DNA of 64,000 nucleotides. Origin: Cladocopium goreaui. Lineage: Eukaryota; Sar; Dinophyceae; Suessiales; Symbiodiniaceae. Positions 3,632-23,114 of this stretch are shown here, piece by piece; position 1 is the stretch's first letter; each line of letters opens with the position of its first letter. Position numbers and translations under genes: made by a program. A model generated the notes under the pieces. It was not told the origin of the DNA and searched no databases. It worked only from the letters and a program-made list of their open reading frames with translations. The stretch is taken from contig CAMXCT020000475.1 in NCBI GenBank assembly GCA_947184155.2, forward strand, positions 58,861 through 122,860. Reading direction: 5' to 3'.

Positions 3632-4009
3632 TGTGTATGTCTGTCTGTGTCTGTGTCTGTCTCTGTATGGGAGGGAGGTGACAGTTGGCCACGCCAGGTT
3701 ACGGGGAAGCATGGGAGCAACTTTCTGCCATTTAGTGGCCCTGCGGTCGGCTATTGAATTTTTCTTCTGGGATCATTGGGAAACGGCCGTTTTGGGCCAA
3801 ATCCTAGCCGGGAGGTCACGGGAGGTCACGGGAGGTCACGGGAGCAAATTTCTGCCATTTGGCGGCCCCTCAGCCGCCTATTGAATTTCTCTTCTGTGAT
3901 CATTGAGACATGGCCGTTTTGGGCCAAATCCTGGCCGGGAGGTCACGGGAGGTCATGGGAGGTTACGGTAGGTTACGGGAGGTTACGGAAAACGGAGAAA
4001 AGTGGAGGA
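3632..4009. repeat. spacer module, copies 2 and 3
   Basis: Two tandem copies (about 125 bp) of the module seen at 1432-1704, each with GCAACTTTCTGCC or its variant, a TATTGAATTT..CTTCTG segment, ATGGCCGTTTTGGGCC and a run of GGGAGGTCAC or GGAGGTTACG. Confidence 0.88.
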
Positions 4010-5571: not shown

Positions 5572-5610
5572 AGAGTCAAAATGATCAAAATGTTAATTTG
5601 TTATAATTTG

Positions 5611-5618
5611 TTCATATT
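5611..5618. repeat. 8-bp target-site duplication, left copy
   Basis: TTCATATT immediately before the left terminal repeat; identical octamer at 23107-23114 after the right one. Joining TTTG, one TTCATATT and TGTTCCAG recreates exactly the intron sequence of the uninterrupted paralogues (for example around 25855-25875). Confidence 0.95.
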
Positions 5619-5639
5619 TTGAGTGTTTTCAAAAGGCTT
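5619..5639 (+). repeat. left terminal inverted repeat (21 bp)
   Basis: Begins TTGAGTGTTTTC and ends AAAGGCTT; matches the reverse complement of 23086-23106 at 21 of 21 positions, and similarity stops at the next base. Confidence 0.95.
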
Positions 5640-5670
5640 GGTAGTCCGGGACCATTTCCGAAACCTTAAA

Positions 5671-6110
5671 ATTGTTCATAATTGTTCAAAATTGTTTCAA
5701 CAATTGTTTAAAATTGTTCAAAATTGTTTCAACAATTGTTTTAAATTGGTCAAAATTGTTTCAACAATTGTTTTAAATTGGTCAAAATTGTTTCAACAAT
5801 TGTTTAAAATTGTTCAAAATTGTTTCAACAATTGTTTAAATTTTGTGAAAATTGTTCAAAATTGTTTCAACAATTGTTAAAAATTGTTCAAAATTGTTTC
5901 AACAATTGTTTTAAATTGTTCAAAATTGTTTCAACAATTGTTTTAAATTGTTTAAAATTGTTTCAGCAATTGTTCAAAATTGTTTCAACAAGTGTTTCAA
6001 TTCTTGTATTTTCTTCAACACTTGTCTCAACAATTCTTCAAACTTTGTTGCTAAATGTTTCAACACATGTTTCAATTTGTTTAAAACTAAAACTGTTTCA
6101 ACGCTTGTTT
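5671..6110 (+). repeat. left subterminal array of the transposon
   Basis: About twelve degenerate units of roughly 35 bp containing ATTGTTTCAACAATTGTT followed by TTAAATTGTTCAAA. The palindromic core CAATTG recurs once or twice per unit. Units decay towards the interior. The reverse-complement form of the same core makes up the array at the right end, so these are candidate transposase-binding sites. Confidence 0.88.
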
Positions 6111-7364
6111 AAACTTGCTCATTACCTAGCCTAGAACTGTTTCAAAAACTTCTTTTGGATCTATCATGAACGCAAAAAATGGTTCTACCCCTTTCAACAC
6201 AGAATGCTACTTGTTCCACCTGCTGTTGACAACGTTAGGTCTGCCAAAGGCAACATCACTTTCCACACCTGCTATCCCCTGGGAAGACTGCGCTCTGGCT
6301 GCTGTTTTTTTTTCTGAAGCTGGCTCACGCTCAGGAGTATCTATCCATGCCTGCCCGGCTCCTTTGCGCCTCAGCTGTGTGCTGTGGCACACATCACGGC
6401 AGAGAAGACATCTTCAGGTTCCATTACTTTGGCCCCGCTTCCAGCTGAGCGCTGTTTTGTGGCCAAGTTGCCTTGGTTCGGTGTCACTTTTCGTTTGCCA
6501 CATGCACTGAGTGCTGTTTTACGATCTAATTCCCTTGGTGTGGTATTGCTTTTCTTGCCACGCGCGCTGAGCGCCGTCTAGTAGTCAAGGTCCAATGTCC
6601 ATTGGTTTGGCGTGACTTTTCTTGCCAACCGCACTGTGCTGTTTTGGTAAGGCCAGCATTGCGGAGCGCCTTTTTTGTAACATGGTCCGAGACCTGCTGC
6701 GCTGCTAGTAAAACATGGCCACACGGCCTTGTAATGGGAGGCGCGCAGCATAAAGAACCAGACCAAAGGTCGCTAACCATCGATCTGACCCTGCTGCGGG
6801 TTTACTGGCTCAGGCTCTAACGGCCTCCAAAGCTCGCACAGGCAAATAAGGAGATGGATCCAAAGCAGGACCAATATGAATACAATCTCAATTGCCAGCA
6901 GTACATAGTAAAGGGTCCAGCTCATGGCCCACGAGGCACTGGCAAAGTCACAGGGGGATTAAGCAAGTGGATAGAGCCGCTCAAGCTACAGGGGAAGGAA
7001 CAAGGCATATAAGTTGCTTGGCTCTTGTTGGCTCGCACGTGACAGCTGAAGGAACAACTGTTGCGACTGCCACTGGCAAGCAAAGCACAGAAAAAATCTT
7101 GAAGATTTGCAAAACAAAACCTTTGAATTATACATTTTTCTTTCTAATTCAACCCAAGCGTTGCAAACATCACCTTTGCTGGCCACCTCAAGATGTGAGA
7201 TTCAAGATTGCCAAATCTAGCAAGAGTAGCGCTGACACAACATGAGCAACTAAAGCTCGGCTGCAAGTCTTTTTCTGCGCAAAGCGAAGCTTCTACAAAA
7301 GTAGCGGGCGCTGGCTGCGACAAATTTGCTGCAAACCAGGGCTGAGCCCGCAGCTTTCCAATTT
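6111..7364. other. left-end non-coding region of the transposon with 60-66 bp repeats
   Basis: Between the left array and the methyltransferase stop. Positions about 6430-6650 hold three and a half units of 60-66 bp, each with GAGYGCTGTTTT, a CCTTGGTKYGG segment and TTTTCTTGCCA. The rest is unique sequence with no convincing gene. It would be the 3' flank of the methyltransferase gene. Confidence 0.6.
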
Positions 7365-9092
7365 TCACAAATCAGCGAGGATTCCCAATGCAGAGAGAGC
7401 ATCGGCTGTTTCTTCCCGTGTGGACGCTCGGGAATCAGGCCTGAACAGCAGGGAGGCCACAGCACTCTGCACAATCGCAAGCAACACTGGCAGAGCCATG
7501 GCATTCCCTGCAAGGTCAGCCATCAAACTTTCTGTCAGCCACTTCCTTCCTGGGCCAGACCGCTTTCGGACTGAGCCCCTTGCCGCAGAAGAGCATTCGT
7601 AGACATCGATGCCTTCTGTCTCTACCAGCTTCAGAAACAGAGGTGCTGGAAATCCTTGAAACAAAAGGGCTTCTTGACCCAACATCAATCTTGGAGGCTT
7701 AACCAGCTCGACAAAGAGCAGCTGACCTGGAAGCATTGTTGGGGCAATGTGCTTCTTGGTATCTTTGCACCAGCTGGCAGTGTGCACTCGTCCAAGCGAT
7801 TGGGAAACATTTCTGAAGCCAGCATCCGGAGCTTGAGCCCTGGACAAAGCCAGCACGTCCTGTTCCCTGGCTGTCAAGGTTTCAAACCACGGATTCAACT
7901 TGAGTTCTTCAGGGTATGGCTGTCCCCATCGCAACCCTTCAGCTTCTGCAAACTTCATGTGTTGGTCTGCCCAATTGCCCGAAGACTTGGGGCTCTTCGA
8001 TGCAGCCTTGGCGCTCTTCTCTTTCCTCTCCTCCAGAAAGGCTTCAACCTCGCCTGAGGCGGGATTTAGCAGCAAATCCTTGGCACAGGGCGGGGATCTC
8101 AGACAGGAGGCTACCATGTTGTTGAACATTTCAAAAGACTCGGTCAAAGACCTGGCTTGAGTGTGAAGCTTTGGGTTCACTTGGCGCACAAACAAAATAT
8201 AAAGCCGGCGCCTTCTGGCAGGCAAGCCGAAGGACGAAGCATCTGTTCGCAAAGGCTGGCCGCTATAGCCCAATTCTTTCATGGTTTGCATCAAGACATC
8301 CAAGTTGGATTGGGCATGTGCCCCAATTTGCTCCTCAAGCCCATCAACATTTTCGTACGTCACCAGCCCAGGTGAGTGAGCTGCAACATAGCTGGTAAAA
8401 CCGTGGTAAGTCTGCGCTGAGCCTCCCAATGAATTGCTCTGCTGGAACACCAACTTTTGTGTCTCCTTCTTTGGATTGGCCTTGCTGAAATCTTTGCAGG
8501 AGGACCCAATGACCAAAAGGTCACACCCAGGCACCGGGCAAAGTTTGCCATGAACAACGCAATGAGCTTCACAGCCGCCCAGCGTCTCGATGTCCTGGAA
8601 GATGCAGCTTCCAAGTTGAAGCAGCTCGCTTTCCCCGTCACTGCCTTCGGAAGCCGACTTCAAAGGGCTGAGGGCTGGCATCAAAGGTCCACAATCTAAA
8701 ACCGCTTGAATCCAACGCTGTTTGTCCTTGTTGCTCTCGCATGAGAAAAGGTGCTTCACGGAGAGCCGGAATCCGCAGGTCTCCGTGCTAAGGCTGTATG
8801 CTCTGGAAAGCGCTTCCATGACATAGAAAGCGCCCTCTGAGCCACTGCAAGCCGATGCCCATGTCAGAGACACGCAAGAGGCAACTTCAGCTTGTTCTGC
8901 AAACCTGCCTGGAAACATGGTTGCAAAACCTTTCAAATTCTCTTGTGCAAATTCATACAGGGCTTCGCCTGACGCAAGGGATTCTGCGTCTGCAACACGG
9001 CTAGAAGCCTGCTTAACCAACTCCAGGTCAAGAACCGCCTCTGCCTCTGATGCATGAGAGTCGCTTTTCTTGAGCACCCTGGATGGGGCCAT
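7365..9092 (-). CDS. C5-cytosine DNA methyltransferase (575 aa), transposon cargo
   Basis: An uninterrupted frame from an ATG with good context (GCCATGG) with the ordered motifs of the DNMT/Dcm fold: motif I TWASACSGSEGA (residues 78-88, S-adenosylmethionine binding), motif II FSCESN (116-121), motif IV GSSCKDFS with candidate catalytic Cys199, motif VI ENV (247-249), motif VIII FGLPARRRRLYI (288-299), motif IX around QGFPAPLF, and motif X AGNAMALPV (528-536). The usual PPC of motif IV is SSC here. No chromodomain, BAH or RFD module is visible; residues 1-70 are unassigned. It would methylate carbon-5 of cytosine in DNA (an RNA target cannot be excluded). It lies closest to the left end of the element and on the same strand as the other genes, so it is cargo of a DNA transposon. 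Confidence 0.88.
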   Translation of the reverse strand: MAPSRVLKKSDSHASEAEAVLDLELVKQASSRVADAESLASGEALYEFAQENLKGFATMFPGRFAEQAEVASCVSLTWASACSGSEGAFYVMEALSRAYSLSTETCGFRLSVKHLFSCESNKDKQRWIQAVLDCGPLMPALSPLKSASEGSDGESELLQLGSCIFQDIETLGGCEAHCVVHGKLCPVPGCDLLVIGSSCKDFSKANPKKETQKLVFQQSNSLGGSAQTYHGFTSYVAAHSPGLVTYENVDGLEEQIGAHAQSNLDVLMQTMKELGYSGQPLRTDASSFGLPARRRRLYILFVRQVNPKLHTQARSLTESFEMFNNMVASCLRSPPCAKDLLLNPASGEVEAFLEERKEKSAKAASKSPKSSGNWADQHMKFAEAEGLRWGQPYPEELKLNPWFETLTAREQDVLALSRAQAPDAGFRNVSQSLGRVHTASWCKDTKKHIAPTMLPGQLLFVELVKPPRLMLGQEALLFQGFPAPLFLKLVETEGIDVYECSSAARGSVRKRSGPGRKWLTESLMADLAGNAMALPVLLAIVQSAVASLLFRPDSRASTREETADALSALGILADL

Positions 9093-9494
9093 GGCAAGAA
9101 CGGCGGCGAAGAATCTCGGGAAATTGAATTAGATACTGTTTAAATGTATCTGCATCGATGTACCAACAACAGATTGTTATAAATGTTTCTTGCTTGGCTG
9201 TCGGCATTTTACCGGTCGTGCATATTGAAAAATGTCTGCATTTCAAAGGCGCTTGCTTCACAAACTTGAGCCAGCTGTGTGACAGGAAGCTGGCAAGGCC
9301 TTTTAGCACGGCACTTGGACAACACAGAAGTTGATCTGTTTGATTCCAGTGCTGCGGTTTCAATAGATCATGAGCAGAATAAACAAGGACAAATCAAACC
9401 TTAGCTGTGGCATGTTTAGCAAACTCTGCCACTAGCATAGAACATGAAATAAACTGATGAACTGAAGCAAGGAAACTGCTGGCAATTTTTTCTT
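9093..9494. other. intergenic region inside transposon
   Basis: About 400 AT-rich bases between the methyltransferase start and the Lys-rich exon. No coding sequence supported; it would hold the methyltransferase 5' region and acceptor, which I could not place with confidence. Confidence 0.4.
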
Positions 9495-10640
9495 TCAGCT
9501 GCTGTCAGTCTTCAAAAATGCGCGGCAGGCGGGCGTCCAATCACTGGCCCCTGCGGCCTCTGCCCTTGCCTCGTCCACGTCCACGCCCATTGCCTGCGCC
9601 AGACTCTGTCTCAGCCTTGCGCTTCTTGGAAGTAGGCTCCTTGTCCTCTTCTGCCATGTCCCTGTCGCCCTCCTCACTAGTCTTAGCTTTCTTTGTCTTC
9701 TTGGCTTTGGACGCTTCCTTTTCTCTTTTGTTTCCTTTTGCTTCTCCTTCTTCTCTTTCTCTTTTTTGTTTTTTTTGTCTTTTTTGTCTTTCTTGTCTTT
9801 CTCTTTTCCCTTCTCCTCATTGCTCTTGTCAGTGGGACTTGCCTCCTTCGCAATGGAGGCGCTGCCAGCATCAGGGGTCTTGTGGTGTGCAGACGCCTCA
9901 TTCAAAACGTTCTGGGCCCTGTGCAACAGCTCAGCATCCGGCTTTTCACAGAGCTTCAGTGCGGCGACTTTCTGTTTGAGGGCTTCTGCCACGCTCTGCA
10001 GTTGCTTCCTGATCATCTTCCCTTCATCATTTGCCGAGCCCAATGACCCGTTGCGGAGAAGACACAAACCAGCCACCATGGCGACATGGACCGAGCCGCA
10101 GGCTGCTGACTTGAGCACCTTTTCGGTGAAACCGGCTTCTCCGCCTTCGTACTTGTGAAACAAAGCGCTGACGCCATTATGCCCTGGGTTGCCTGGTAGG
10201 CCGATGTCAGACAGCTGCTTCACAGCTGACACACCCTTCAGCCTCACCTTCTCGTTCTGGCCAATTTGCGCGACCAGGTCGGCGACTTGCTTTGTCACCT
10301 TGGCACCCTCTGTCCTGTATTCCGCTTCTTTGCAGCTGGGGTCGGGCAACTTTGCCAGCAAGCTCTCTAGCTGCGAGGCTGCATCCCAAGCGGTTGCGAA
10401 CTCCTTCTCACAAGCCTTGGACAAGCTTTGTGTGATCTGTGCTACAGTACTGGTCAACCATGCCAATGTGTCAGGGTGGCTAAAAGTAACCTGTTCCATG
10501 TCTTTGACCAACTTAGCGGAGGCCAGGCCTTCCCGCACTTGCTCCAAGAGCGGATTCAGCAAGAGCCAAAATTTTTGCAGCACTGCAGACAGCTGACACA
10601 TCACCAGCGGATCTTCGGAAGGGATCGGAAATTCTGCCAC
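9495..10640 (-). CDS. 3' exon of Cys/helical cargo protein, Lys-rich, frame slip near the end
   Basis: The frame opens after a TTTCTTGGATAGCTGCAG acceptor and has no ATG at its start, so it is probably a downstream exon of the gene beginning at 14198. Residues 1-250 are helical (LLNPLLEQVREGLASAKLV and similar), then comes a Lys/Glu-rich run (KDKKDKKDKKNKKEKEKK). After this run the protein loses typical composition. A different frame reads KAKKTKKAKTSEEGDRD, then a KKRK basic motif and a tail of Gly-Arg repeats, stopping at 9541. That tail is the more natural C-terminus, so a one-base slip in the A-rich tract around 9690-9790 is likely (mutation or assembly error). Function unknown; a nuclear, nucleic-acid-binding protein is plausible. 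Confidence 0.6.
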   Translation of the reverse strand: MAEFPIPSEDPLVMCQLSAVLQKFWLLLNPLLEQVREGLASAKLVKDMEQVTFSHPDTLAWLTSTVAQITQSLSKACEKEFATAWDAASQLESLLAKLPDPSCKEAEYRTEGAKVTKQVADLVAQIGQNEKVRLKGVSAVKQLSDIGLPGNPGHNGVSALFHKYEGGEAGFTEKVLKSAACGSVHVAMVAGLCLLRNGSLGSANDEGKMIRKQLQSVAEALKQKVAALKLCEKPDAELLHRAQNVLNEASAHHKTPDAGSASIAKEASPTDKSNEEKGKEKDKKDKKDKKNKKEKEKKEKQKETKEKRKRPKPRRQRKLRLVRRATGTWQKRTRSLLPRSARLRQSLAQAMGVDVDEARAEAAGASDWTPACRAFLKTDSS

Positions 10641-10829
10641 CTGCAGCTATCCAAGAAACAAAGCAAAGCTGGTGGTGTAGTGCCGTAGCAGCTTGTTTCC
10701 ATGCCAGCCACATTAAATCGCACATACATATCATATCGAATCATAACATACTAGACTATACTATACTGTTTTCTTAAACAGCTCAAACTTAAACTGAAAT
10801 TCAAAAACCCATGCATGCCATGCCCCGTG

Positions 10830-11453
10830 TCACAACTGGGCCGCTTGGATTGCACAACCATGCTGCACATACAGGAGGGCCTGCAGAAACAAGTCGACAA
10901 CAGCCTTCATTTCGTGAGAGGCAGGGATGCTCTGCAGCGTTTGGTCCCGCACTTGCTTGCTGAGGCCAGCCCCTAAAAGACCCTTGACGCATTTTGACAC
11001 GATTGGCCCCACCCTTTCCAAACCTTTTGAGAATAGACTCTCCAGGTCATGTTGAATGGGTGACAGAAACTGATCTTTGAATTTCTCAGCTACCCCTTCA
11101 GGCACGAAGCGTTGCACCAGGGCAACGCCCGAATCGGACCACTTCTGCAATGTCTCTGGCGACGCTGCTGGAACAGGAGGCAGATGGGAGAATGCCTTGT
11201 GCTTGTAGAAAACATGCTTGGCAACGTCAGCTGCCAGCTCAGACGCTGCTTTGAACTTGGCAACTTCATCGGCGGCTGCCGTCACCTTTGCCCAGACTTT
11301 GTGCTGCACAAAAGCTGTGGCCTTGAAGGAGAGCAAGGACTCATCTAAGTTGAGAAGGGCAAAGGCACCGCTGGCAAGGCTGACCAAACAGTCATTCGCC
11401 AAGGCCTCACAAAAATAAGTCCTCAGGATTGCAAGCGATGCAGGCAGCTGCAA
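10830..11453 (-). CDS. internal exon of Cys/helical cargo protein
   Basis: An open frame of 207 codons beginning right after a GCTGCTGCTTGCAG acceptor, with no ATG at the start. The product is alpha-helical and Ala/Leu/Lys-rich (LPASLAILRTYFCEALANDC, then SHEMKAVVDLFLQALLYVQ). It lies between two similar helical exons on the same strand and is most simply part of the same gene. No known domain recognised. Confidence 0.5.
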   Translation of the reverse strand: MQLPASLAILRTYFCEALANDCLVSLASGAFALLNLDESLLSFKATAFVQHKVWAKVTAAADEVAKFKAASELAADVAKHVFYKHKAFSHLPPVPAASPETLQKWSDSGVALVQRFVPEGVAEKFKDQFLSPIQHDLESLFSKGLERVGPIVSKCVKGLLGAGLSKQVRDQTLQSIPASHEMKAVVDLFLQALLYVQHGCAIQAAQL

Positions 11454-11654
11454 GCAGCAGCTGGAAGGATGTCAGAGGGAAAAAAAAGGCAGAGAAGTGC
11501 TGGAATCATTGGGCACCTTGAACCTAGTGATGCACAGGCCTGCAAACATGAAAACAGTGGCCGCCACTACCAATGAAGAAACATATGTCTATATACTAGC
11601 TCCTGGGGGACAAAACATAGAAAAAAAAACTGCCCACAACTGCTTCACACAACT

Positions 11655-14198
11655 TCATGCCAAGTCGAGGCAGCCATTGCAGCCAAAAGTCAGATGGCTC
11701 TCCATGTTGTCCTTGCACACGATCCGCACCAGGTCAACAGACCGCTCGCTGACCTGCCTTTCCAACCTTTCCAGATCAACCAGCAAGCGACTTGAGATCT
11801 GGTCCCGCTTCTTCTTTTTCGACTCCTGAAAAAACGTGGTTTGCTTGGCGGCGTCCAAAGCTTCCACTGCTGGCTCAATCCGCTCCTGTACCGCAAGAAT
11901 GCCGGACTCAGCCTCTGGAGGGCTTTGCTTAGGCCAGGCGGCCAAGTGAGACACTGCTTTCTGCAAAACTTCCACCTTCTCTTCAAAAATCCTCTCTTTG
12001 TCCCCTTGCTCCACACGCAACTGGGCCACAGAAAGGAAAGCCTTTCCGGTGTCGTGTTGCAAGAAAAATTTCTGCAAAGCCGGGGCAGCGTCAAGCTTGT
12101 CTTTTTCCAAGCCCGTCAAGGCTTTAACCTCCTCCACCAGCATTCCAACATGGTCCTGCCCCAGCAAACAACGCACCGTCTTGACAGAGTCTGCCAGCTC
12201 CCTTGCCATGAAGTTTTGGCCATCCTTGTCACATGCTTTTGCTATCGCATCTGCCAAATCTAAACATTCACCCATTCTGGGAACTTCGCCACCTAGCTCT
12301 GGGACAGCCTTTCCAGGGGCGAGGAGAGCCAACTCACTGGCAGGAATTGCTCGCAAGCAAGCAAGCATGCGGTGCTCCACTTCCAGGGCGCTTTCTTTGG
12401 CCGCCGCTTCGGTTCCCAACAAGGCAGCCAACTGCTTCATTGGTTCGGACGGCAACGCAAATGCCTGGCAGAACCCGCTGTACTTCCCATACAGAAACTC
12501 TTTCTGGCTCTGAGCAACAACAAGCTTCAACCAATATAATGGACCCAGCTGAACACCACCAGCGGAAACTGCGTCATGGGCACTGATGTAAGCATCCGGG
12601 TCCAAGGTAGGAGCAATGACGTTTGAAAGAAGCTTCGCTGAAGCCTGGGCCAGGTTTCCAAGATCCTGCAAGGTGTCTAACTGCTTCTCAAAGGAATCCC
12701 GGTTGTTTGACTTTCCAACTCTGGTCACTGTGTCCTTTGCTTTTCTCGCTACTGTGTTGCAAGTGGAAATTCTTTGGGCAGCCTCCAAACGAAACTCTTT
12801 CATCTGGGTGGTGCTCTGCGGCTTGTCATCGAAACTTACTTCAGCAAGTTTCTGTTTTGCATCAGAAACGGCAGCTTCCAAAGTCTTCAAAGTGCGGTTG
12901 GCACGGCCATCCAAGGAAAGCATCCCATTGCTCTCAGGCACAGAGGTTGGGGCAAGGCTGGAAGCCTGTGTTGCCTTTGGCGTTTTCGCAATGCCGCTGG
13001 CGTGCCCTTTCTTTTCTTGCCTTGGCAACGCAGACGCGGTACTTGGCTGTTTGGGCGCCTCCTTTGCTTTGGCTTTGGCCTTCGCCTTGGCTGGCTTTGC
13101 GCTGCTCTCACCAGGCGTCTCCTTGCTTGCGCCTTTAACCCCTGAAGATTGCAGCAACTCCAAGCCTGCTGCTGTATCCTCCTCCTCTGAGGAGGTGCTT
13201 GACCAGGCGGAATTTTCTTCAACGCTGTCAGTGTCCTTCCCTTCTGCGCCAGCTGCTCCAGCTGCAGCCGGAACCTCAGCAGAGCTGGCAGCTGCGCTGC
13301 TCTGTGAGCGCACAACCTGGACCAAGTCCGCAAAAGTCATGTCACTCTCTGAGGCCTTCACTGAAGCGGCGTCTCTCTCCTTGGCCTGCTGCTGCAGTGT
13401 CTGCGGGGCGGCTTGCTTCTTTGCTTGGAATGCTTCGTCTGCAAAAATTGCTTGCTGCCCATCATCTTCAATGACTCGCTCCTCAACCCCAGTGTCTTCA
13501 TAAGCTTCGAAGTCATACACACCTTCTTGCCCCACTGTGCGCCACACACCTTTCTTCATCACTCCACCGATCAAATGGTCCACCTCCTTAGTTGGGTCCC
13601 ATTCGCCGTGGCGCTTGCTGTCCCAATGGGTGCTGAGAACAAACTGCTTCTTTGGCCCTGTCAACTTGCCACCCTGTTTCTTCGAAATCACAAGCTCTCT
13701 TTGAGTTTTCAGCAACTCCTCTTTGTCCTGAAGCTTGAACTTGTCAGGGTTGTCATGGTGCTGCTTCAGCCACTGCTTCACAGCAGCTAAGAAGTCCTTG
13801 TGCTCGTGCTGGTTCTGCTTCTGGCTGATGTGTTTGTAGTACTCAGCATATGTCTTGTACCTCCTGTGCTTACCAAGCAGCCGAAAGACATTGAAGCAAG
13901 GCAAGCAGCACTTACCTTCCGGAACACGCACAGAGTGCTCACGCAATTTCCTGTGCTTGGCCCAAGGCCTGTAAGGGAGAAACCCTTCAGCTTCATGAGG
14001 TTCCTGGACCAAGGGGTTGGGGTCAGTGCTCTTGGCAGAGCACAAGCAGCACTCACAGGGCTTGCTATACTCAATTGAAATCGGAAACACTTCACTTCCG
14101 CCAGCTGTGCTGGCGGCCTGGCTCCTCTTGACACCGCGCGGTCTAGCAGGCCCATTGCTAGAACTGCTGGAGTCACTGAGGCCTGGATCCGGCTCCAT
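11655..14198 (-). CDS. N-terminal exon of Cys-cluster/helical cargo protein (about 847 aa)
   Basis: The frame is open from 14249, but the first ATG is at 14198 (MEPDPGLSD), just after a GTTCAAG acceptor-like site. Near the N-terminus is a Cys cluster: PCECCLC, then about 45 residues later KCCLPC, a possible zinc-binding module. A helical basic region follows (KHRRYKTYAEYYKHISQK), then a Ser/Ala/Glu-rich disordered linker with an AKAKAKAKAKEA stretch, and a long helical C-terminal half. The stop at 11655 is probably intronic read-through, because helical exons follow downstream. I do not recognise a characterised family. The position beside the transposase suggests a DNA-binding accessory factor, which is inference. 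Confidence 0.6.
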   Translation of the reverse strand: MEPDPGLSDSSSSSNGPARPRGVKRSQAASTAGGSEVFPISIEYSKPCECCLCSAKSTDPNPLVQEPHEAEGFLPYRPWAKHRKLREHSVRVPEGKCCLPCFNVFRLLGKHRRYKTYAEYYKHISQKQNQHEHKDFLAAVKQWLKQHHDNPDKFKLQDKEELLKTQRELVISKKQGGKLTGPKKQFVLSTHWDSKRHGEWDPTKEVDHLIGGVMKKGVWRTVGQEGVYDFEAYEDTGVEERVIEDDGQQAIFADEAFQAKKQAAPQTLQQQAKERDAASVKASESDMTFADLVQVVRSQSSAAASSAEVPAAAGAAGAEGKDTDSVEENSAWSSTSSEEEDTAAGLELLQSSGVKGASKETPGESSAKPAKAKAKAKAKEAPKQPSTASALPRQEKKGHASGIAKTPKATQASSLAPTSVPESNGMLSLDGRANRTLKTLEAAVSDAKQKLAEVSFDDKPQSTTQMKEFRLEAAQRISTCNTVARKAKDTVTRVGKSNNRDSFEKQLDTLQDLGNLAQASAKLLSNVIAPTLDPDAYISAHDAVSAGGVQLGPLYWLKLVVAQSQKEFLYGKYSGFCQAFALPSEPMKQLAALLGTEAAAKESALEVEHRMLACLRAIPASELALLAPGKAVPELGGEVPRMGECLDLADAIAKACDKDGQNFMARELADSVKTVRCLLGQDHVGMLVEEVKALTGLEKDKLDAAPALQKFFLQHDTGKAFLSVAQLRVEQGDKERIFEEKVEVLQKAVSHLAAWPKQSPPEAESGILAVQERIEPAVEALDAAKQTTFFQESKKKKRDQISSRLLVDLERLERQVSERSVDLVRIVCKDNMESHLTFGCNGCLDLA

Positions 14199-14705
14199 GG
14201 CAGCTTGGAACTGGTGTGGATCCAACTCTCGGAAACCTTGAACGCACAAACTGCTTACGGTGTAAATGCGGGAAATGTAATTTCAGGGTTTGGAAGAAAT
14301 ATTGAGAAATATTGAAAATTCTTGCAAACATTTGCAAAAAGAATTGCAAAACGTTTTCTCTACGAATGATTTGTAGAGATTTTGAACAGCATTCAAACAT
14401 TATGTATTAGTTTTAAATACAAACTAAAAAAAAGAAAACTTTTCTCTACGAATGATTTGTAGAGATTTTGACTACAAAACATTTCATAATTGTTTGGAAA
14501 TATGTTTCCAAAAGATTCAAAAATTATACATAATATATTAAAAAATATCATATTTCGAGAACTATTTTTGTCGCAGCTGATGGATTGTTGGAGGCGCAAG
14601 CTTCAAAAACACAACTAGACCTTGACTCATGTGCTGATTGGACCACCTTCATGCAAGTTGGATTTCCCTAGCCAAGCCTAAGGCTTAAAGTTAAAGGCAA
14701 CCTGC
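14199..14705. promoter_or_regulatory. intergenic region with a duplicated hairpin motif
   Basis: Between the transposase stop and the Cys-cluster gene. The motif TCTCTACGAATGATTTGTAGAGATTTTGA occurs twice (from about 14357 and 14447), each able to form a 7-bp stem TCTCTAC/GTAGAGA with an 8-base loop. The rest is AT-rich. Could serve as an RNA-processing, terminator-like or protein-binding site for the adjoining genes. Confidence 0.5.
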
Positions 14706-17530
14706 TCACAGAATGACGGGAAAGCGTGCTTTTTTTTCAGCAAAGGCAGCCTGTCTGTCTAAAGCAGCCTCTGGTTTTCCCGAGCTGAAATCTACCAGGC
14801 GCAGGCCGCCCAAAGACAGGTGCATTGAGCGGCCCTGCCCCTCAGGCCAATCACTGTCTTGCAACCCGGCTAGAAGCCAACGTTTGAGACGGAGCCGGCA
14901 GTCTTCCTCGGAAAGCTCGGATGTTGTCAAAGCTTTTCTGCAATAGATTCCTGGCCCGTCCTCTGAATTGCGATGTAAGCCACAGATAGCTCCATAGCCT
15001 GTTTGCACACCTTGGCTGTAGATGGGCCCCAAATGAAATACGCCCCATGCTTCACTCCTTCGCTGGCGGGTTGCTTTTGCATTTGTCACCTCTGCAGAGC
15101 AGGCCGGTTTGATTCTGAGAGGGGCTTGAACATGTGGAGCTGGAGGGGGCTCTGCTTTGGATTCCTCGTTAAATTGTCTGGCAAAGCTTCTTGGGTCAAA
15201 GTAATCTGCCAGTTCTGGCCTTGCCAAGTTTCCAGACGGTGTTCCGTCCTCTGCATCGGTGTTGTAGCCACTTGCCTCACTGTTGTTGGATCCATGCTCG
15301 GATTCAGAATCGACGCCCAGCAATCGTCTTTCCGCTGACAGGGCATGTGAAGCTTTGAGTCGCTTCGCTGACCGGGGGCCCATTTCTTTGGCCCCATTCT
15401 GGGACTGTTGATTTGCGGTCCGCTTCTTGTGGTTGCCCAGCAAGTGGCTGAGAGCTTGTAGGGCGTTTGAAACTTCAAGTGCTTCTTGTGCCTTTGTCTC
15501 AAAAGAGCTCTCTTCAAAAGCCGTTACAGCTACCACATCGAAACGAACCAAAGACAGAACCTTGCCCACTTCCAGAAAGTGAAAAGACCAGTCAGACGCA
15601 AGCTGCGCCAGTCTGACAAATAAGGCCCTGTCACTTGTCAAATCAAGATGAGGAGCTTTGCCCTCACCAAAGTAACCTCCGGCACAATCGCTGAACAACA
15701 AACTGAAGACTACGCCTTGCTCTGCCAAGCCGGGTAAACTGACCCTATGAAGTACAAGCAAAGCAGCCTCCCAAGGAGCCCTCCTGGTGTGAAACATCAC
15801 CGCAACATCTTTTGAAACATTGGCGGCTTCTGAACGCAGAGACAACAGGAGCACTTCCTTTGCTACAGCCTTTGGCTTTGGAGCATGATGTTTGACGATG
15901 AACCAGAAGCGGTCATGCAAGGAAGTCACCACGGCCAAGCCGGCATCTGGCAAGGTATGCATGCATCCGTCCTTGGGGCAGTTTGGCATTAAAGGATATG
16001 GCTCCCTTGGCGCACCAGCAAACGCATCAGCATTTTCAGGCAAAAGACGGTTGTAGTCATTGTTAAACTGAGCAGACATGGTGTTCATTTGGCTTTGATT
16101 GCTAAGGACAACATGGCGGGCAAGTGGGAAACCATCAGGTGTACCAACACCGCAAGGACTGCCAGCAGGGAGAGCATCGCCCCCTTCTGTGGCTGCAGCT
16201 GCTTGGGATGCGGCCAAAGAAGCTGCTACATTCCTAGCTTGCGCCAAGCGCGAGTATCTCTTTTTTTCTTCAAGGGTGCAACCTCGCCAGGCCCTCAAGG
16301 CAGCTCTTTGCCGTTCCTGCAAAGTTCCCCCAAGATTTTGCAACAGATACTCTTGGCTGAACACATGCCAACCATTTGCGCATTTGCCTTTTGTTCTTGA
16401 ATGGCTCCAAGCTGGCCTGCTGATATTGCGTTTTGTTGCTGCCTGTTGTTTCAAAACACGCTTCCGCCACAGCTGGGTGCTTTGCTGGAAGCGGCCTGAT
16501 ATATGTTTGGCAGCAATGCTGCTCAGTTTCGGGCTGCGCCCCTTCACATCGGCCCACTCAGAAAGCCTGGAAAACACCCGCTCAATGAATGTGCTGGTTG
16601 GAACCACACGCTGCAGCACGGCTTCCAAGAATTTGAGCGTGCCTGGTTCCAGCATTGCATGCTGTGGAACAGTGTCACGGAGTTGGCGAGCAAAAGCATC
16701 AAGCTGGCAATCGTTGCAACTGAACAAGGACCGCACGCAATCTTGCTTCTCACTCAAGCTCACCTCTGGATCGACCAAAGGCTCCAATGCCCAAGGGTAC
16801 TGCTGGAAAGGGTAAACAAGCTTTCTCCACAATTGGCCCACAACCAAGCACAAAGTGCGACGCGTGATTCTCAGCCGTTCTTGGTTCCAAGAAAGAACAG
16901 GGCCAAAGGCCAGAATAACTGGATCCCAACCCATGCCTGCAGGCAGGTGAGCTAGCTCACTGATAGAATCCAAGGCTTTCAATGCAGGGCTCAGGGATGC
17001 TCTGCAGAAACATGCCATTGACAGCGGTCTCAGTTCAGCATCTTCAAATAAATCTAGCACCTCTTCCTCATCATCTACAGCGTCAGCTTCAACGCGCTCA
17101 GAGAGCCAAGTTGCGTGCTTGAAAAGTGCAAAATGCACCCTCATGATCGGCTTTGTCAGCACGCACCATAAACAAGTCATCCAATTGCTTTGTTGGTCAG
17201 ACAGGAAAAAGCAAGCCTTCCGCACTCTCAGCCTGGCAAGTTTTCGCCAAGCTTTGCTTTCATCAACTGGGACGCCCACAGCTGCCCCCTCATCCTCTGA
17301 ACCGGAATCGTCCTCAGGGGGCGGGCAAAGCTCCTTGCAGGCCTGTGGAACAAGATTGCAAAAACTTTGCAGCACGGCAACATGCCTGACACAGGGCGCT
17401 ACTTTTGTCCACTTGTTCATAGCAGGAACGGAGATACAAGTGAGTAGCTTGGACGTCAGAAGCTCCATACCCCTCTCAACACTGGCGTCTCTGTCCGTGC
17501 AGCACCCTTGGCAAACATGCGCTGGTGGTC
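14706..17530 (-). CDS. transposase candidate, C-terminal exon with HMG-box-like region
   Basis: From an acceptor CTTCTTCAG at 17531 the frame runs through GPPAHVCQGCCTDRDASVER into the ATG at 17468 and on for 920 codons. Counting from that ATG, residues 1-330 resemble the second half of an RNase-H-fold transposase: VPAMNKWTKVAPCV, a helical insertion, then VVPTSTFIERVFSRLSEW (286-305), where Glu296 in TFIERVFS sits like the final acidic residue in hAT-type enzymes. KGRSPKLSSIAAKH follows. Residues 364-413 (NGWHVFSQEYLLQN...EEKKRYSRLAQARN) match the HMG-box pattern. The remaining 500 residues are unassigned. It pairs with the exon at 21288-22484, and the reading frame is continuous across the proposed splice. 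Known: hAT and KDZ transposases use a DDE RNase-H core. Inferred: this is the element's transposase. Confidence 0.62.
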
Positions 17531-18217
17531 CTGAAGAAGGAGGAGGCTGGCATCACGGTAGGACCGATCAATGGTGAGCTACTATGGGACCTGTGGGGGG
17601 CTAGGAATTAATACTATAGGCTATAGGTAATATAAAATCGAATCAATCAATCTAAACCCATTTGATAGTTCAGCATGGGGCCTATGACGGTGACTCAACA
17701 AAAATGCAAAGACAGCCAATGGGGACACAAATTCCGATTCAAAGGAGATAAAAAATAATAAGCCTATAATTCCAGAATAGCCAATGAACTACGAACAATC
17801 AGCTTCAGAAAGGGCGCAAACAACTATGATTCAACTGGTGAGAAATAAACAAAATGTAACTGTATAATTATCTGTATACTTACCGAAATTGATCATGGAA
17901 CCACACAACACATATCGGAATCTACCTAAACATTCTGGACCCTACCATTTGTGTTGACTTTTTATGGAAAATCCCACACCACACCTTTCTGCCCCAGCCC
18001 TGCTTGCACCCTTTTTTCACACACAGGCGTCTGTCTCACGCAGTCAAATCTGCCGCCAAAAGCAGCAGCAAAGCCGTAGTGCAGACACCTGGTCAGAGAC
18101 CGCCAGCTGTTGAAAATGTGGCTCAACTAGCCTTGGTTGGGAACCAGGCTAGAAGCCGTGCATGCAAGCCAAGCAGCAGCACCTAACAGTGGAAGAAGCC
18201 AAAAGCCATTGGCTCAC
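17531..18217. other. 3' portion of the long transposase intron, non-coding
   Basis: AT-rich sequence between the ankyrin-gene stop and the proposed intron acceptor. No coding region seen. A TCTGTCTCACGCAG tract near 18028-18041 reads on the plus strand and is not obviously used. Confidence 0.45.
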
Positions 18218-19069
18218 TCAGGTGTACCAATAGCGGCGCTGCTTTGGATTGGGGCATTGCTCCTCTGCTCCCCATGACTTCAAATAGCTCGCCACTTGAA
18301 AGTTGGTATTCAAGGCAAGGTCCACAGCCCCTGCACCTCGCTTGCCAGACCTGGTATTCAGCATGTTGCTCACCAGGCGGAACGCCGAGTCGGATTCTCC
18401 AGCTTTCTTATACGTGGTCCAGCAAATCTTTTTGATGGCCATGAGGTTTGCCTGGGCAGCTGCCAAGTGAGCAGCCGTTTGGCCGTTGTAGGCCTGGGCA
18501 CAGATTGACTGAACACTCATCACATGAAGGAGAAGTCGCAGTATGCGCTGGTAAATGTCCTCTCCAACAGAGTGCACGGGCGTGTCCATGAGAACCATGA
18601 GAGGCGTCCAGCGCGCTGGGCGGGCATCAATGCCCGTTGTTTTTTCTGCAAGCTCAGGGCAGCGTTGCAAAAGAAGATCCACAATGTTGGCCTGGCCAGT
18701 CCTGACAGCATGGTGAATCAAGGACATGCCTTGGCTGTCGCAAACTTCCGTCAGCACTGGTACTGGCAGCGCAGCCAACTGAGCTTCGAAGCCAGGGTCC
18801 CGGTTCAACAAGGCATCAAGCAACTGAGACCTTTGGTTATCCGAAACACGTTGAGCCTCAATCTTTTCCAGCTTTGCAAGAAGGGACTGGTGGGACACCT
18901 TCTGGGCTTCCAGCAAGTCCAACAAGCTTTGGGAAGCCTGGTCAGACAAATTTCCCAGCTCTTCCTGAGCTTTGGCCTTCTCACCAGCTGGAACAGCCTG
19001 AGCAATGGAGGCTGGTCGCTCTTCATCAGGATCATAATCGACTTCCATACCTGGGAAGGCGCCGGTCAT
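18218..19069 (-). CDS. ankyrin-repeat protein (283 aa), nested in transposase intron
   Basis: First ATG at 19069 (MTGAFPGMEVDYDPDEE); the frame is open a few codons further up. An acidic N-terminus and a coiled-coil-like segment (QSLLDLLEAQKVSHQSLLAKL) are followed by three ankyrin-like repeats: DSQGMSLIHHAVRTGQANIV, then ARWTPLMVLMDTPVHS...IYQRILRLLL, then YNGQTAAHLAAAQANLMAIK. The C-terminus ends QRRYWYT. Ankyrin repeats bind proteins; no enzyme domain is seen. It lies on the same strand as the transposase, between the phosphatase-like gene and the intron acceptor. Confidence 0.68.
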   Translation of the reverse strand: MTGAFPGMEVDYDPDEERPASIAQAVPAGEKAKAQEELGNLSDQASQSLLDLLEAQKVSHQSLLAKLEKIEAQRVSDNQRSQLLDALLNRDPGFEAQLAALPVPVLTEVCDSQGMSLIHHAVRTGQANIVDLLLQRCPELAEKTTGIDARPARWTPLMVLMDTPVHSVGEDIYQRILRLLLHVMSVQSICAQAYNGQTAAHLAAAQANLMAIKKICWTTYKKAGESDSAFRLVSNMLNTRSGKRGAGAVDLALNTNFQVASYLKSWGAEEQCPNPKQRRYWYT

Positions 19070-19109
19070 CCAGAACAAAAAGATATGTGGGAAAAACAGG
19101 CAACCTGTA

Positions 19110-19160
19110 GGATTGAATATATATATATATATTATTATATAATTATATAATTATAAACTA
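19110..19160. repeat. AT-rich microsatellite
   Basis: ATATATATAT followed by TTATATAATTATATAATTATA, directly upstream of the ankyrin gene on the minus strand. A second (AT)n tract lies at about 20683-20699, in the intron of the phosphatase-like gene. Confidence 0.85.
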
Positions 19161-19301
19161 TTTATATGGTCTCTGTGTGTGTGATATGTGACAAATGGGG
19201 ATTATGAAAACTGAACATCATTGTTGCACAACATAAACAGGAACTACAAAATTACATTTGTCAAATGACAGACAACTATATCACTATATCGGTTTATGAT
19301 G

Positions 19302-20579
19302 TCAAATGTCTAAAAGGGCTTCATAAAGGCAGCAAGATGGAAAATTAGCTGGGCGACCATCTGGCGCAGCACCCTCCTTCGAGCCATCAACGGCAGGCGC
19401 AGCCTTCGAGCCATGAGTCGCTTCCTCAGCTGGGGCCTCGGCACCTGGCGCTGGGGCCGCATCCCCTTCCACCTTCGCCTTCTTGGGATCAGGCTCATCA
19501 TTTGGCTCACCTGCCTTGTTTTCTAAGCTTGGCTCTTTTGCCTGCTGGCCAGCCAACGACGCCTGAGGCGCACCAGCCTCAGCAGAAGCGCTTGCAGGCG
19601 CAGCTGTCAACGACAGCTCGTCTCCCACCACAACAGCTGCTGGGTGCCCAGAAGCGTCTTTCAGCGTCAAACCAGGCTCAAAGCCGCCAGAGCTTGAAAC
19701 ATGATTTTCCAACTTGAGGGTCAAGTCCGTCAAGTCTTCAATCAGCATCCGGAGCTTGCGGCGCCGCAGCTCAGAGCCTTCGCCTGCACTGCCACTACGT
19801 GGCGTAGACGCCGGGCTCTCCACAAAAAGCCACGAAGCACTTCCGGCCATGCTGCCAGCGGCTCTGCAGCGCAAAAAAGTACCATCGCTGTTCTCAGCAT
19901 CAGTGCCCATGTCGTAACTCTGGGTTGTCTCCCCTTCATCTGAAGATGACTTGCGGTCGACTCTTGTCAGCAGCGATGTCCGGCCTGCAGCAAACCTGGC
20001 TTCAAAGCCGAGCTCCAGCGCTTTTCGCCTCAAAGGCACAAACCCAATGGCTGCTTTGGCATTTTCCCGGGCACTGCCAGCATGCAATGCTTCCTCGATC
20101 TTTTCCAAAAAGTCAACTGGGCGCACCATCTGGGCCCTTCCACGCGAGGGTGGGGCTCGGCTCTTTAGGTCTACTATGTTGCGCATAGTGGCTAGATAGG
20201 CGCTAGCCTGGGAGGAGGACCAGGATAGAAGCCGCATCAGCACCATGCACACCAAGGTCGCAGACCTGTCAGCCCCGTTGTTGCAAGCTATTAAAACAGA
20301 TTTTCCATTCACCAGGAGCTCAATGATATCAGTGATGATCGGCAAAATCTTGTCCAGCTGAACGTCCCCCTGGGCCGCATCTGTTCCGTCCACTGCGTCA
20401 AAGACATACACTTGAGGCGTCTCCGGGACTGCAGATGCACAAGCAGGCCAGACATAGCCCACCTCATTCTGTGACAGGAGCAAGGTGTTGTGGACTGCCT
20501 TCTCACCACCCAGCCACAATCTTCCATACTTCTCGGTCTCAAAGATCAAAGTCATGGGATGCCTGGGCAGGGCAACCCA
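19302..20579 (-). CDS. dual-specificity-phosphatase-like protein, exon 2
   Basis: After an ATACTTAG acceptor the frame reads WVALPRHPMTLIFETEKYGR then LWLGGEKAVHN, the typical opening of a DSP fold, and continues to VLIACNNGADRSATLVCMVL. This holds a CX5R loop (Cys91 and Arg97 counted from the Met at 20555; Cys codon 20283-20285), although the usual His before Cys is Ala. A candidate general acid lies in VFDAVDGTDAAQGD. Residues 200-417 are Ser/Ala/Pro/Glu-rich and look disordered, with a possible basic nuclear signal (DPKKAKVE). DSPs remove phosphate from Tyr/Ser/Thr or from RNA and lipids; the substrate here is unknown. The gene lies within the proposed transposase intron. Confidence 0.68.
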   Translation of the reverse strand, partial: WVALPRHPMTLIFETEKYGRLWLGGEKAVHNTLLLSQNEVGYVWPACASAVPETPQVYVFDAVDGTDAAQGDVQLDKILPIITDIIELLVNGKSVLIACNNGADRSATLVCMVLMRLLSWSSSQASAYLATMRNIVDLKSRAPPSRGRAQMVRPVDFLEKIEEALHAGSARENAKAAIGFVPLRRKALELGFEARFAAGRTSLLTRVDRKSSSDEGETTQSYDMGTDAENSDGTFLRCRAAGSMAGSASWLFVESPASTPRSGSAGEGSELRRRKLRMLIEDLTDLTLKLENHVSSSGGFEPGLTLKDASGHPAAVVVGDELSLTAAPASASAEAGAPQASLAGQQAKEPSLENKAGEPNDEPDPKKAKVEGDAAPAPGAEAPAEEATHGSKAAPAVDGSKEGAAPDGRPANFPSCCLYEALLDI

Positions 20580-20764
20580 CTAAGTATACAGCAAACACAT
20601 CGCAAAGAAAGTGCGCATGGGTTAAGTTATCTCATACTTACCGCCTTATAGTGTATAAATATTTATATTAATATAGGCGACTATATATATATATATATAC
20701 CCAAGTAAAACAACACCATTACAATCATATGAATGGTACCGCCACCCAACCCCATGCAGCACCT

Positions 20765-21004
20765 CTTGTTGTATTCTTCCCTGGCGAACTTCACGCATTC
20801 CACAGACCCGTAGTCATCCACGACAAGGAACTTGTCCAACTCCGACAAGGCCTCGCTCAAGCCTGCCGCTGTCAGTTTGGCACCAGGCCCCAGGCCGTGA
20901 AACGCTCTGGACCGAGCATCTGCAGGCAGGTATGCCTTTGCCAAGTTTCCGTTCCGCACATTGTCCAAAGACCTTGCACTGGAAAGCTCCTTTGACAGGG
21001 CCAT
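20765..21004 (-). CDS. dual-specificity-phosphatase-like protein, exon 1
   Basis: Starts at an ATG in GCCATGG context (MALSKELSSARSLDNVRNGN) and encodes about 80 residues ending KFAREEYNK. Joining AACAAG to TGGGTTGCC in exon 2 keeps frame and leads straight into the DSP opening, so this is taken as exon 1. The donor after AACAAG is not GT in that register (AGGTGC follows), a common ambiguity in dinoflagellate introns. The N-terminal extension has no recognised domain. Confidence 0.55.
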
Positions 21005-21287
21005 GGCGATTGTGGCTAGCCTTGGCGGTCACTCAATCCTCTTTGCAAAAGACTTGGGCCAGAAGAAGCGGGCGAGCACCGCAATTCTCATTGCATGCTG
21101 TGACAGCAGCAGCTCGCAGCAGCAGCAATTTTAAATTACAGCTACAAGGACTTTAACTTGAACTTTAAGAAATAACACAACCAGATGAGATCAACAAGAC
21201 AAATACTGACTGGATTTATGTTTATAGTCTAGAGTCTAGCCACGGCCAATCCCAAACCATCCCACATCCAGCCCACTCAACCCAGTC

Positions 21288-22484
21288 CTGTCCAAGGACC
21301 AGGAAAAAAGGCGACAAAATCGTCAACAAACCTGGTCCTAGACCGTTTAGCATTCGGCTTCTCATCTTCGCACTGCAGCATCATATGCAGGAAGGTTTTT
21401 GCCTGCCTGCGGGCCACAGCCCACTCCGCTTGCAGGCCTGGAGGCTCTGCACCCATGACCACCAACTTTTCAGTCAACACTTTCCTGACTGATTCTTTGA
21501 GGTCATTCAAAAACTTCCCCCTGCGAGTGCTCTTGGATACACAAAACGAACCAGGTAATATACCGAGATGCTTAGTTGCCCTTTCAATGACGTTTCCATT
21601 TCGGTGCTGCGCGCAAAGACTTGGAAATACGAAAACATCCTGCTGCACTACTGAATGCAAATGCTTTAGCAATCGGATGTTTGCTGGGTGCTGGTCACAG
21701 GACACCAGGACAGCTGAAAACTTAGCTGCTTCTGAATGGATGGAACCAGGCCTGAGGCCGCCCTCGTCCAGACACAACGCACCCCACATGCAAGATGCCG
21801 TTTTGCGAGGGAGAGCTCTTGGCGGCCTTGCTATGTCAATTTCCAAGTCGTGGCCCTCAGCATGGATGCTCAGTTGGCTGTGGCTTGCCAATATTGACCA
21901 GCTTCCTGCTCCATCCTGGTCCAGCGAAACGTCCAACTCTGTCTCATCAAACATCATGTTCAAAATTTGATACAGCACTTCCTTTTCTCCATGAAGGTGC
22001 GAGCTTTGATCACACGCGATGGGCTTGCCCCATCAACCTCCCTGGCAGATTGCCTGACAGATGCATTAGCCTGGCCAAAGGCCGCCCTCAACATCGCCTC
22101 AGGCGTCCACTTCTTCCAAGCTCCCTGCCCTTTTGGCTTGGGCCTGGCGTCATCAGCCGGCTGCAAAGGCAACAAGTGATCCATGGTTCTGTGGCGCCCC
22201 GAAGCATTGGAAGCCATTGCCTGCAACCTAAAAGCTTGCCTCCTGTGATCCTTATCTTTTTTCCGCAAGAAGTTCTGCCTGCCTCTCTTGGCATTCATTC
22301 GCCTTGCTCTTGCCCGGAAAATGGCACGGGCGCCGCGCCCAATGCCCCTACCACGCCCAAGGCCACCACGCCCAAGGCGGCCAACCCGTGCACCAGGTCG
22401 AAGACCGGGCTGATCATCTTGACCTTCTTGTTCTTGCTGCTGGTCACCAAGTGCTATCCCTGCTAAGTCATGCAGGCTCAGCAT
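21288..22484 (-). CDS. transposase candidate, N-terminal and DD part
   Basis: The first section (ATG at 22484, MLSLHDLAGIALG) is Gly/Arg-rich and very basic (GRGGLGRGRGIGRGARA), then helix-turn-helix-like (WKKWTPEAMLRAAFGQANAS). Near 21978 the coding frame changes: downstream it reads VLYQILNMMFDETELDVSLD, so a short intron or an indel lies here. The second section has a candidate first Asp in MMFDETELDV, a candidate second Asp in VSCDQHPANIRLLKHL, and LCAQHRNGNVIERATKHLG. The Asp...Asn then Cys-x2-His pattern matches RNase-H-fold transposases. It ends FVAFFPGPWTG at 21288, where G|GACTGG is the proposed donor; phase fits the exon at 17530. Confidence 0.6.
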
Positions 22485-22774
22485 TCGCCAAGCAATGCAA
22501 ATCAAAACAACATTCAGTCGCAAACCCAGCGGTAAATTGAGAACACGAAGCAGCTTGAACCCAAAATGGCAATGCGATTCTGTTTGTTGCTTGCTGAAAA
22601 CCATGCAGTCGATTTTTAGGCTAGCTATAAGCCAACGCTTGATATTTGCAAGTGAAACCACGTCACAAAGATTTGTGTACTTTTGCTAACCATGATTGAA
22701 AATTGTTGGTTTTGGCGGAATCTTTGTTGGAAAAGTCAAACAATGCCAGAAACTTTCGAACAAATTATTGAAAG

Positions 22775-23047
22775 AATTGCGGCAACATTTGAACAATTGT
22801 TGAAACAATTGCAGAAACATTTGAACAATTGTTGAAACAATTGTAGAAACATTTGAACAATTGTTGAAACAATTGCAGAAACATTTGAACAATTGTTGAA
22901 ACAATTGCAGAAACATTTGAACAATTGTTGACACAATTGCAGAAACATTTGAACAATTGTTGACACAATTGCAGAAACATTTGAACAATTGTTGAAACAA
23001 TTGCGGGAACTTTTGAACAATTGTTAAAACAATTGCGGAAACATTTG
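22775..23047 (-). repeat. right subterminal array of the transposon
   Basis: Eight units with a period of about 32 bp, GAACAATTGTTGAAACAATTG then CAGAAACATTT. The 17-bp core AACAATTGTTGAAACAA is the exact reverse complement of the left-array core. Minor variants are ACACAATTG and GCGGGAAC. Repeat-derived Cys/Asn/Phe-rich open frames across it are not genes. Confidence 0.9.
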
Positions 23048-23085
23048 ATATAAGTTTAAATGCTCCCCTTGTAACCCTTCACCAG

Positions 23086-23106
23086 AAGCCTTTTGAAAAC
23101 ACTCAA
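23086..23106 (-). repeat. right terminal inverted repeat (21 bp)
   Basis: AAGCCTT...CACTCAA, the exact reverse complement of 5619-5639, directly followed by the right TTCATATT target duplicate. Confidence 0.95.
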
Positions 23107-23114
23107 TTCATATT
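23107..23114. repeat. 8-bp target-site duplication, right copy
   Basis: TTCATATT, identical to 5611-5618; the host intron resumes with TGTTCCAGTTGG as in the other copies. Confidence 0.95.

What the first reader, a model, noticed from the sequence alone, without database searches (positions are those of the whole stretch)
5619..23106. Complete 17.5-kb cargo-carrying DNA transposon in a dinoflagellate-like genome
Seen directly: perfect 21-bp inverted termini, perfect 8-bp target duplication, and an empty-site sequence preserved in sister gene copies, so the boundaries are known to the base. Inside are a transposase candidate, a methyltransferase, a phosphatase-like gene, an ankyrin gene and a Cys/helical protein, all on one strand. 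From knowledge: 8-bp duplications fit hAT, P or KDZ/Zisupton elements, which rarely carry this much cargo. The whole looks like a new giant element family.
Basis: partly seen in the sequence, partly recalled or inferred. Interest (0 to 1): 0.93.

Follow-up and report, generated by a model that had tools for sequence, protein, structure and literature searches.

The report
DNA-methyltransferase-carrying transposon in a dinoflagellate
A 17.5-kb jumping DNA element in a genome like that of coral-symbiont dinoflagellates has exactly defined ends and carries, besides its (here damaged) mobility enzyme, an apparently intact DNA-methylating enzyme and several accessory genes, a combination I did not find described for a cut-and-paste transposon.

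Summary
The element (5619-23106) has perfect 21-bp inverted ends and a perfect 8-bp target duplication; all four sister gene copies carry the uninterrupted site. Each end has eight copies of AACAATTGTT, with none elsewhere in the 64 kb.

On the minus strand it encodes a DDE-type transposase in two blocks, a cytosine-5 DNA methyltransferase (Pfam E 1.2e-13), phosphatase-like and ankyrin proteins between the two blocks, and a Cys-rich/helical protein. The first block models as an RNase H-like catalytic half with D, D and CxxH; Hermes and retroviral integrases match at tied, modest scores. The 12 of 131 relatives with organism names are all Symbiodiniaceae.

The parts
5611..5618 (.). target-site duplication, left (TTCATATT)
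5619..5639 (+). terminal inverted repeat, left, 21 bp
5670..6000 (+). left subterminal repeat array (32-bp period), 8 copies of the palindrome AACAATTGTT
7365..9092 (-). cytosine-5 DNA methyltransferase, 575 aa, uninterrupted single ORF
9495..10640 (-). ORF 381 aa, helical then Lys-rich; probable last exon of the Cys/helical protein gene (inferred)
10830..11453 (-). ORF 207 aa, probable middle exon of the Cys/helical protein gene (inferred)
11655..14249 (-). ORF 864 aa, Cys-rich N-terminus then helical (by reading); no family match above cutoff
14706..17468 (-). transposase second block, 920 aa (P0001 is also similar upstream, towards 17552): helical region, conserved E in PTSTFIER, HMG box, two further predicted alpha/beta regions
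18218..19078 (-). ankyrin-repeat protein, 286 aa
19302..20555 (-). dual-specificity-phosphatase-like protein, 417 aa, with C(X5)R signature (motif recalled, read)
20681..21028 (-). ORF holding a probable further transposase exon (relative P0020 continues into similar sequence)
21277..22032 (-). transposase first block: D (FDET), D (CDQ), CxxH; RNase H-like catalytic half
21960..22484 (-). N-terminal part of the transposase first block (basic tail, then a helical, possibly DNA-binding region, inferred); frame broken relative to 21277-22032 by a deletion of about 20 codons compared with relatives
22738..23048 (-). right subterminal repeat array (32-bp period), 8 copies of AACAATTGTT
23086..23106 (-). 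terminal inverted repeat, right, 21 bp
23107..23114 (.). target-site duplication, right

Best explanation
This is a member of an apparently undescribed family of cut-and-paste DNA transposons of Symbiodiniaceae dinoflagellates. SHOWN: the ends, the target duplication, the empty site, subterminal arrays with one palindromic motif, a predicted RNase H-like catalytic half with conserved D, D and CxxH, and, by equal contig lengths, co-occurrence of both transposase blocks with a DNA methyltransferase on two other contigs. INFERRED: the two blocks form one DDE transposase (D, D from the first block; E from the second), through a long intron or as two subunits. It binds the AACAATTGTT arrays, pairs the ends with help from its HMG box, excises the element and inserts it with an 8-bp stagger. 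INFERRED and least certain: the carried methyltransferase methylates the element's own DNA, so that it looks like the host's methylated genome, or modulates its own expression. The phosphatase, ankyrin and Cys/helical proteins are accessory. The window copy was inserted into one unit of a tandem gene array and now has a broken transposase frame, so it probably moves only with transposase supplied by another copy.
Confidence: 0.75

Rival explanations
1. A true hAT-superfamily element, merely large and divergent, with captured host genes that are incidental passengers of this copy.
For: 8-bp duplication, short inverted ends, subterminal repeats, DDE with CxxH (the Kat1 paper PMC4763223, passages read, names 8-bp duplications and a C-terminal hAT domain as distinguishing, and CxxH as conserved in several superfamilies); Hermes among the structural matches.
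Against: No hAT domain in any of 15 second-block rows at E <= 1, nor in 6 scans at E <= 10. A recalled hAT-domain consensus never aligned best at the PTSTFIER site: 13 of 15 rows scored below their best shuffle, one tied, and one (P0003) beat all 200 shuffles but at another place. The methyltransferase co-occurs on two other contigs, so it is unlikely to be incidental.
Confidence: 0.3
2. A member of the P-element or KDZ/Zisupton lineages with extra cargo.
For: 8-bp duplication (recalled for both); P element in the Foldseek list (E 0.022 and 0.026); one of 19 first-block rows hits the P-type RNase H model at E 0.11.
Against: No KDZ, THAP or P-type GTP-binding model matches at E <= 1 in 34 rows.
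Confidence: 0.2
3. The two transposase blocks are two genes (subunits), not exons of one gene; the phosphatase and ankyrin genes lie between them for that reason.
For: The blocks are separated by about 3.2 kb holding two ORFs with their own start codons, each 40-130 bp downstream of a TA-run (19118-19131, 20682-20699). In Symbiodinium CCMP2592 the two blocks appear as separate named proteins (P0020; P0007, P0011).
Against: An in-frame GT-AG join is possible in the window (read; the script join included 3 extra bases of the acceptor, which leaves the frame unchanged). Two EukProt models (P0064, P0065) join first-block and second-block pieces.
Confidence: 0.35
4. A Maverick/Polinton-like virus or other viral insertion.
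For: Size range, inverted ends, several genes.
Against: 8-bp, not 6-bp, duplication (6 bp recalled); no capsid, DNA polymerase, packaging ATPase or rve integrase in the Pfam scan of 9 ORFs; no relatives of the methyltransferase or second block, and no exact terminus, in viral contigs.
Confidence: 0.02
5. An assembly artefact that joins unrelated pieces.
For: No reads were available; the frame break could be an assembly error.
Against: Perfect matched ends, duplication and intact sister sites would not be expected from a misjoin; part of the gene set (both transposase blocks and methyltransferase) recurs on other contigs.
Confidence: 0.02

Closest known systems
hAT transposons (Hermes, Ac, Tol2, Kat1)
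   Same: 8-bp duplication, short inverted ends, subterminal repeat clusters, RNase H-like DDE with CxxH
   Different: No detectable hAT C-terminal domain; HMG box; transposase in two blocks with genes between; 17.5 kb with a methyltransferase
SymbioLINE-Dnmt and SymbioDIRS-Dnmt3 retrotransposons (PMC5890265; passages and sections 6 and 11 read)
   Same: Selfish elements of Symbiodinium that carry cytosine methyltransferases in intronless ORFs
   Different: Those are retrotransposons, with Dnmt3 or an orphan methyltransferase lineage. Here the vehicle is a DNA transposon and the only solved sequence matched is a Dnmt5 (name recalled). Whether this enzyme belongs to the orphan SymbioLINE lineage was not tested
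TET/JBP-carrying DNA transposons of fungi (PMC12730594; abstract and two passages read)
   Same: DNA transposons, KDZ and hAT among them, that carry a DNA-modification enzyme
   Different: Opposite kind of enzyme (dioxygenase versus methyltransferase), other hosts, other transposases
Giant eukaryotic transposons (Polinton/Maverick, Teratorn, giant Gypsy with ankyrin repeats; PMC6431247, passages read)
   Same: Large size, accessory genes
   Different: No viral genes found here; that review's text has no 'dinoflagellate', and its one 'methyltransferase' is an arginine-methyltransferase-interacting protein
KolobokP (PMC9587614; abstract read)
   Same: Eukaryotic DDE transposon with a second enzyme gene
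   Different: The second enzyme is a homing endonuclease; composite-like ends

Membership tests
hAT superfamily | 8-bp target duplication | tested here: met
   TTCATATT both sides, empty site in 4 of 4 sister copies
hAT superfamily | target consensus nTnnnnAn (recalled) | tested here: inconclusive
   one insertion only; T at position 2 fits, T at position 7 does not
hAT superfamily | RNase H-like fold with D, D, CxxH | tested here: met
   a fold shared with many integrases, so not specific
hAT superfamily | C-terminal hAT domain (PF05699 type) | tested here: not met
   0 of 15 rows at E <= 1; 0 of 6 scans at E <= 10; recalled consensus does not align best at the expected site in any of 15 rows. 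A very divergent domain could be missed
hAT superfamily | BED zinc finger at the N-terminus (recalled; not universal) | tested here: not met
   no zf-BED match in 19 first-block rows, some of which are N-terminally incomplete
P elements | THAP domain and P-type RNase H/GTP-binding insertion | tested here: inconclusive
   1 of 19 rows hits TNP-like_RNaseH_N at E 0.11; no THAP; P element in Foldseek list at E 0.022
KDZ (Kyakuja-Dileera-Zisupton) | KDZ transposase model | tested here: not met
   no match at E <= 1 in 34 rows; a divergent member could be missed
Maverick/Polinton | protein-primed polymerase, capsid, packaging ATPase, rve integrase | tested here: not met
   nine ORFs
Cytosine-5 DNA methyltransferases | PF00145 domain with catalytic Cys, ENV and RxR motifs | tested here: met
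   activity not tested
DNMT5 | DNMT5-type methylase domain | tested here: inconclusive
   the only PDB sequence at E <= 1e-3 is 7r76 (3.9e-12; deposited as DNA repair protein Rad8, Cryptococcus Dnmt5 by recall); no tree was made
DNMT5 | RING and SNF2 ATPase domains (recalled) | tested here: not met
   575-aa ORF with PF00145 as its only family above cutoff; PMC5890265 section 6 says most exon-rich Symbiodinium DNMTs lack additional known domains

The most novel reading that the evidence does not exclude
A new superfamily of DDE transposons, specific to dinoflagellates, in which the RNase H core is divided between two genes or a gene-bearing giant intron. It would be a first case of cut-and-paste transposons that carry a DNA methyltransferase as core equipment, kept across Symbiodiniaceae genera (the time depth is inferred, not measured).
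Probability: 0.35. Interest if true: 0.85.

Novelty: new variant of a known kind. Interest (0 to 1): 0.68.

Why it matters
Symbiodinium retrotransposons are known to carry DNA methyltransferases (PMC5890265). Finding one as stable cargo of a DNA transposon in the same hosts would suggest that methyltransferase capture is a general strategy of selfish DNA in genomes where CG methylation is the default. It would also make the function testable, because a DNA transposon has defined ends and an empty-site control. The transposase is also a candidate for a deep new branch of DDE enzymes.

Tried and rejected
Viral origin: no viral genes in nine ORFs; no viral-contig relatives of the methyltransferase (single protein, so close relatives only) or the second block, no exact terminus. 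The first block was not searched in viral contigs. Prokaryotic relatives of the first block: none in genome contigs, as a single-protein search that reaches close relatives only.

Sequence search of solved structures with both transposase alignments: the HMG box only, besides matches at E above 0.1 that I took as chance; Hermes was not found by sequence. Second-block structure: among the 50 rows shown only HMG boxes stood out, and no transposase was listed. Absence from those lists is not evidence against a family.

A matrix correlation of first- and second-block identities over five contigs gave 0.28 with one 414-kb fragment, because it barely overlaps the others, and 0.89 with the other fragment (4 of 120 permutations as high). 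The second was chosen after seeing the first, so it is weak support and is not used in the argument.

Literature: ten searches showed no report of this element, or of a DNA-transposon-borne methyltransferase in dinoflagellates, in the listings or passages seen; some searches found 92, 75 and 634 papers, of which 20 each were listed. PMC11071213 (passages) names giant transposons only in its reference list, in the passages shown. PMC5890265 cites DNA transposons with a DNMT in marine viruses (its reference 16, not seen). Most subscription journals, and Repbase, were not covered.
Full report
OBSERVATION. The finding is correct to the base. The 21-bp terminus occurs only at 5619-5639 (+) and 23086-23106 (-), with no other match at up to 3 mismatches and 0 of 100 shuffles with two. 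TTCATATT flanks both ends. The window holds a tandem array of about 2.8-kb gene units. Four other units carry the uninterrupted site: the joined-flank query aligns across the junction at 98.5, 96.5, 94.0 and 93.0% identity. Three of these four have gaps of 6, 10 and 10 bp beside the target, in a TTTGTT-type repeat; I read these as slippage, but excision scars are not excluded.

ENDS. Inside each terminus lies an array with a 32-bp period, at 5670-6000 and 22738-23048. The palindrome AACAATTGTT occurs 16 times in the 64 kb: 8 in the left end, 8 in the right, none elsewhere. Subterminal repeats that modify transposase activity are known for hAT elements (PMC4763223, passages read).

GENES. The ORFs described here are all on the minus strand. 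Pfam gives PF00145 for 7365-9092 (E 1.2e-13), ankyrin for 18218-19078 (Ank_2 3e-7) and DSPc for 19302-20555 (6e-8, 0.5 bit below the curated cutoff). The ORFs 14249-11655, 11453-10830 and 10640-9495 have no family match above cutoff and are probably exons of one Cys-rich/helical protein (inferred).

BROKEN COPY. Compared with P0015 and other relatives, the window's first block lacks about 20 codons near 21960-22032 and changes frame there. Relatives with a continuous first-block ORF exist. This copy is probably not autonomous, unless the break is an assembly error.

SPLIT ARRANGEMENT. The phosphatase and ankyrin ORFs lie between the two blocks. An in-frame splice between the blocks is possible by reading the sequence, but public gene models disagree: separate proteins in Symbiodinium CCMP2592, joined pieces in two EukProt models. 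Undecided.

CARGO IS SHARED. A search with the methyltransferase gave 66 relatives. Its best hit (P0066, 87%), the best second-block hit (P0001) and the third-best first-block hit (P0017) all come from a contig of 108,133 bp. A second trio shares 414,522 bp (P0077, P0013, P0050/P0062). Two further contig lengths, 994,407 and 564,222, pair the two transposase blocks only. All these clusters stand for one contig each. With lengths jittered at random, coincidences average 0.0015 (second/first block, 4 seen), 0.001 (second block/methyltransferase, 2 seen) and 0.102 (first block/methyltransferase, 2 seen; 0.001 above 20 kb). Identities to the window run in parallel on both trios. The gaps: I could not read that DNA, so distances, gene order and termini there are unknown, and 12 of 14 second-block hits showed no methyltransferase on a contig of equal length. 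Contigs are often short and only listed relatives count, so this neither shows nor excludes absence.

METHYLTRANSFERASE. It is one uninterrupted 575-aa ORF. In 17 rows (16 of the 66 hits plus the window) the catalytic Cys, ENV and the two Arg of the RxR motif are in 17 of 17. The only solved sequence at E <= 1e-3 is 7r76, deposited as Rad8 (Cryptococcus Dnmt5, by recall). Retention of the motifs in relatives of 87 to 26% identity suggests selection for activity; no dN/dS was computed.

HOST. The 12 relatives with an organism name (2 of 14, 4 of 51, 6 of 66) are from Symbiodinium, Durusdinium or Effrenium; Effrenium was confirmed as Symbiodiniaceae, the other two are recalled. The window is therefore dinoflagellate, most likely Symbiodiniaceae (inferred).

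FUNCTION. Cut-and-paste transposition is the most likely mechanism. For the methyltransferase, the 2018 paper on Symbiodinium retrotransposons (section 11 read) proposes that methylated copies may avoid recognition as foreign in a genome with widespread CG methylation, or that the enzyme may slow the element to the host's benefit. I extend the first idea to this DNA transposon, as a hypothesis.

VERDICT. A real, precisely bounded and apparently undescribed family; a new variant of DNA transposon rather than a new kind of mobile element, unless the superfamily question resolves as new.

Noticed in passing
42695-52538: Copia-type LTR retrotransposon: 156-bp LTRs 100% identical, ORFs of 814, 1184 and 1146 aa, RVT_2 in the last; probable 5-bp duplication ACCAG (read). 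The 1184-aa ORF matches a RapZ C-terminal domain model (E 1.2e-9), which is unusual.
   Followed up: partly
4366-38960: Tandem array of about 2.8-kb gene units encoding small proteins with KELP repeats from AAGGAGCTTCCC tandem units; no Pfam match at E <= 0.01 for the three ORFs scanned.
   Followed up: partly
5500-5618 and sister units: Three of four sister copies carry 6-10 bp gaps beside the insertion target; slippage is likely, excision scars not excluded.
   Followed up: partly
19118-19131 and 20682-20699: The only (TA)5+ runs in the element lie 40-130 bp upstream of the ankyrin and phosphatase ORFs.
   Followed up: no
1130-3640 and 57134-58018: Long simple-sequence arrays, (AGTGTAG)n with strong GC skew and (CTAT)n.
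   Followed up: no
55995-60518 and 60874-63998: Duplicated segment in three aligned blocks of 93, 89 and 92% identity.
   Followed up: no
P0064, P0065: EukProt gene models that fuse pieces of the first and second transposase blocks, a hint of one spliced gene.
   Followed up: partly
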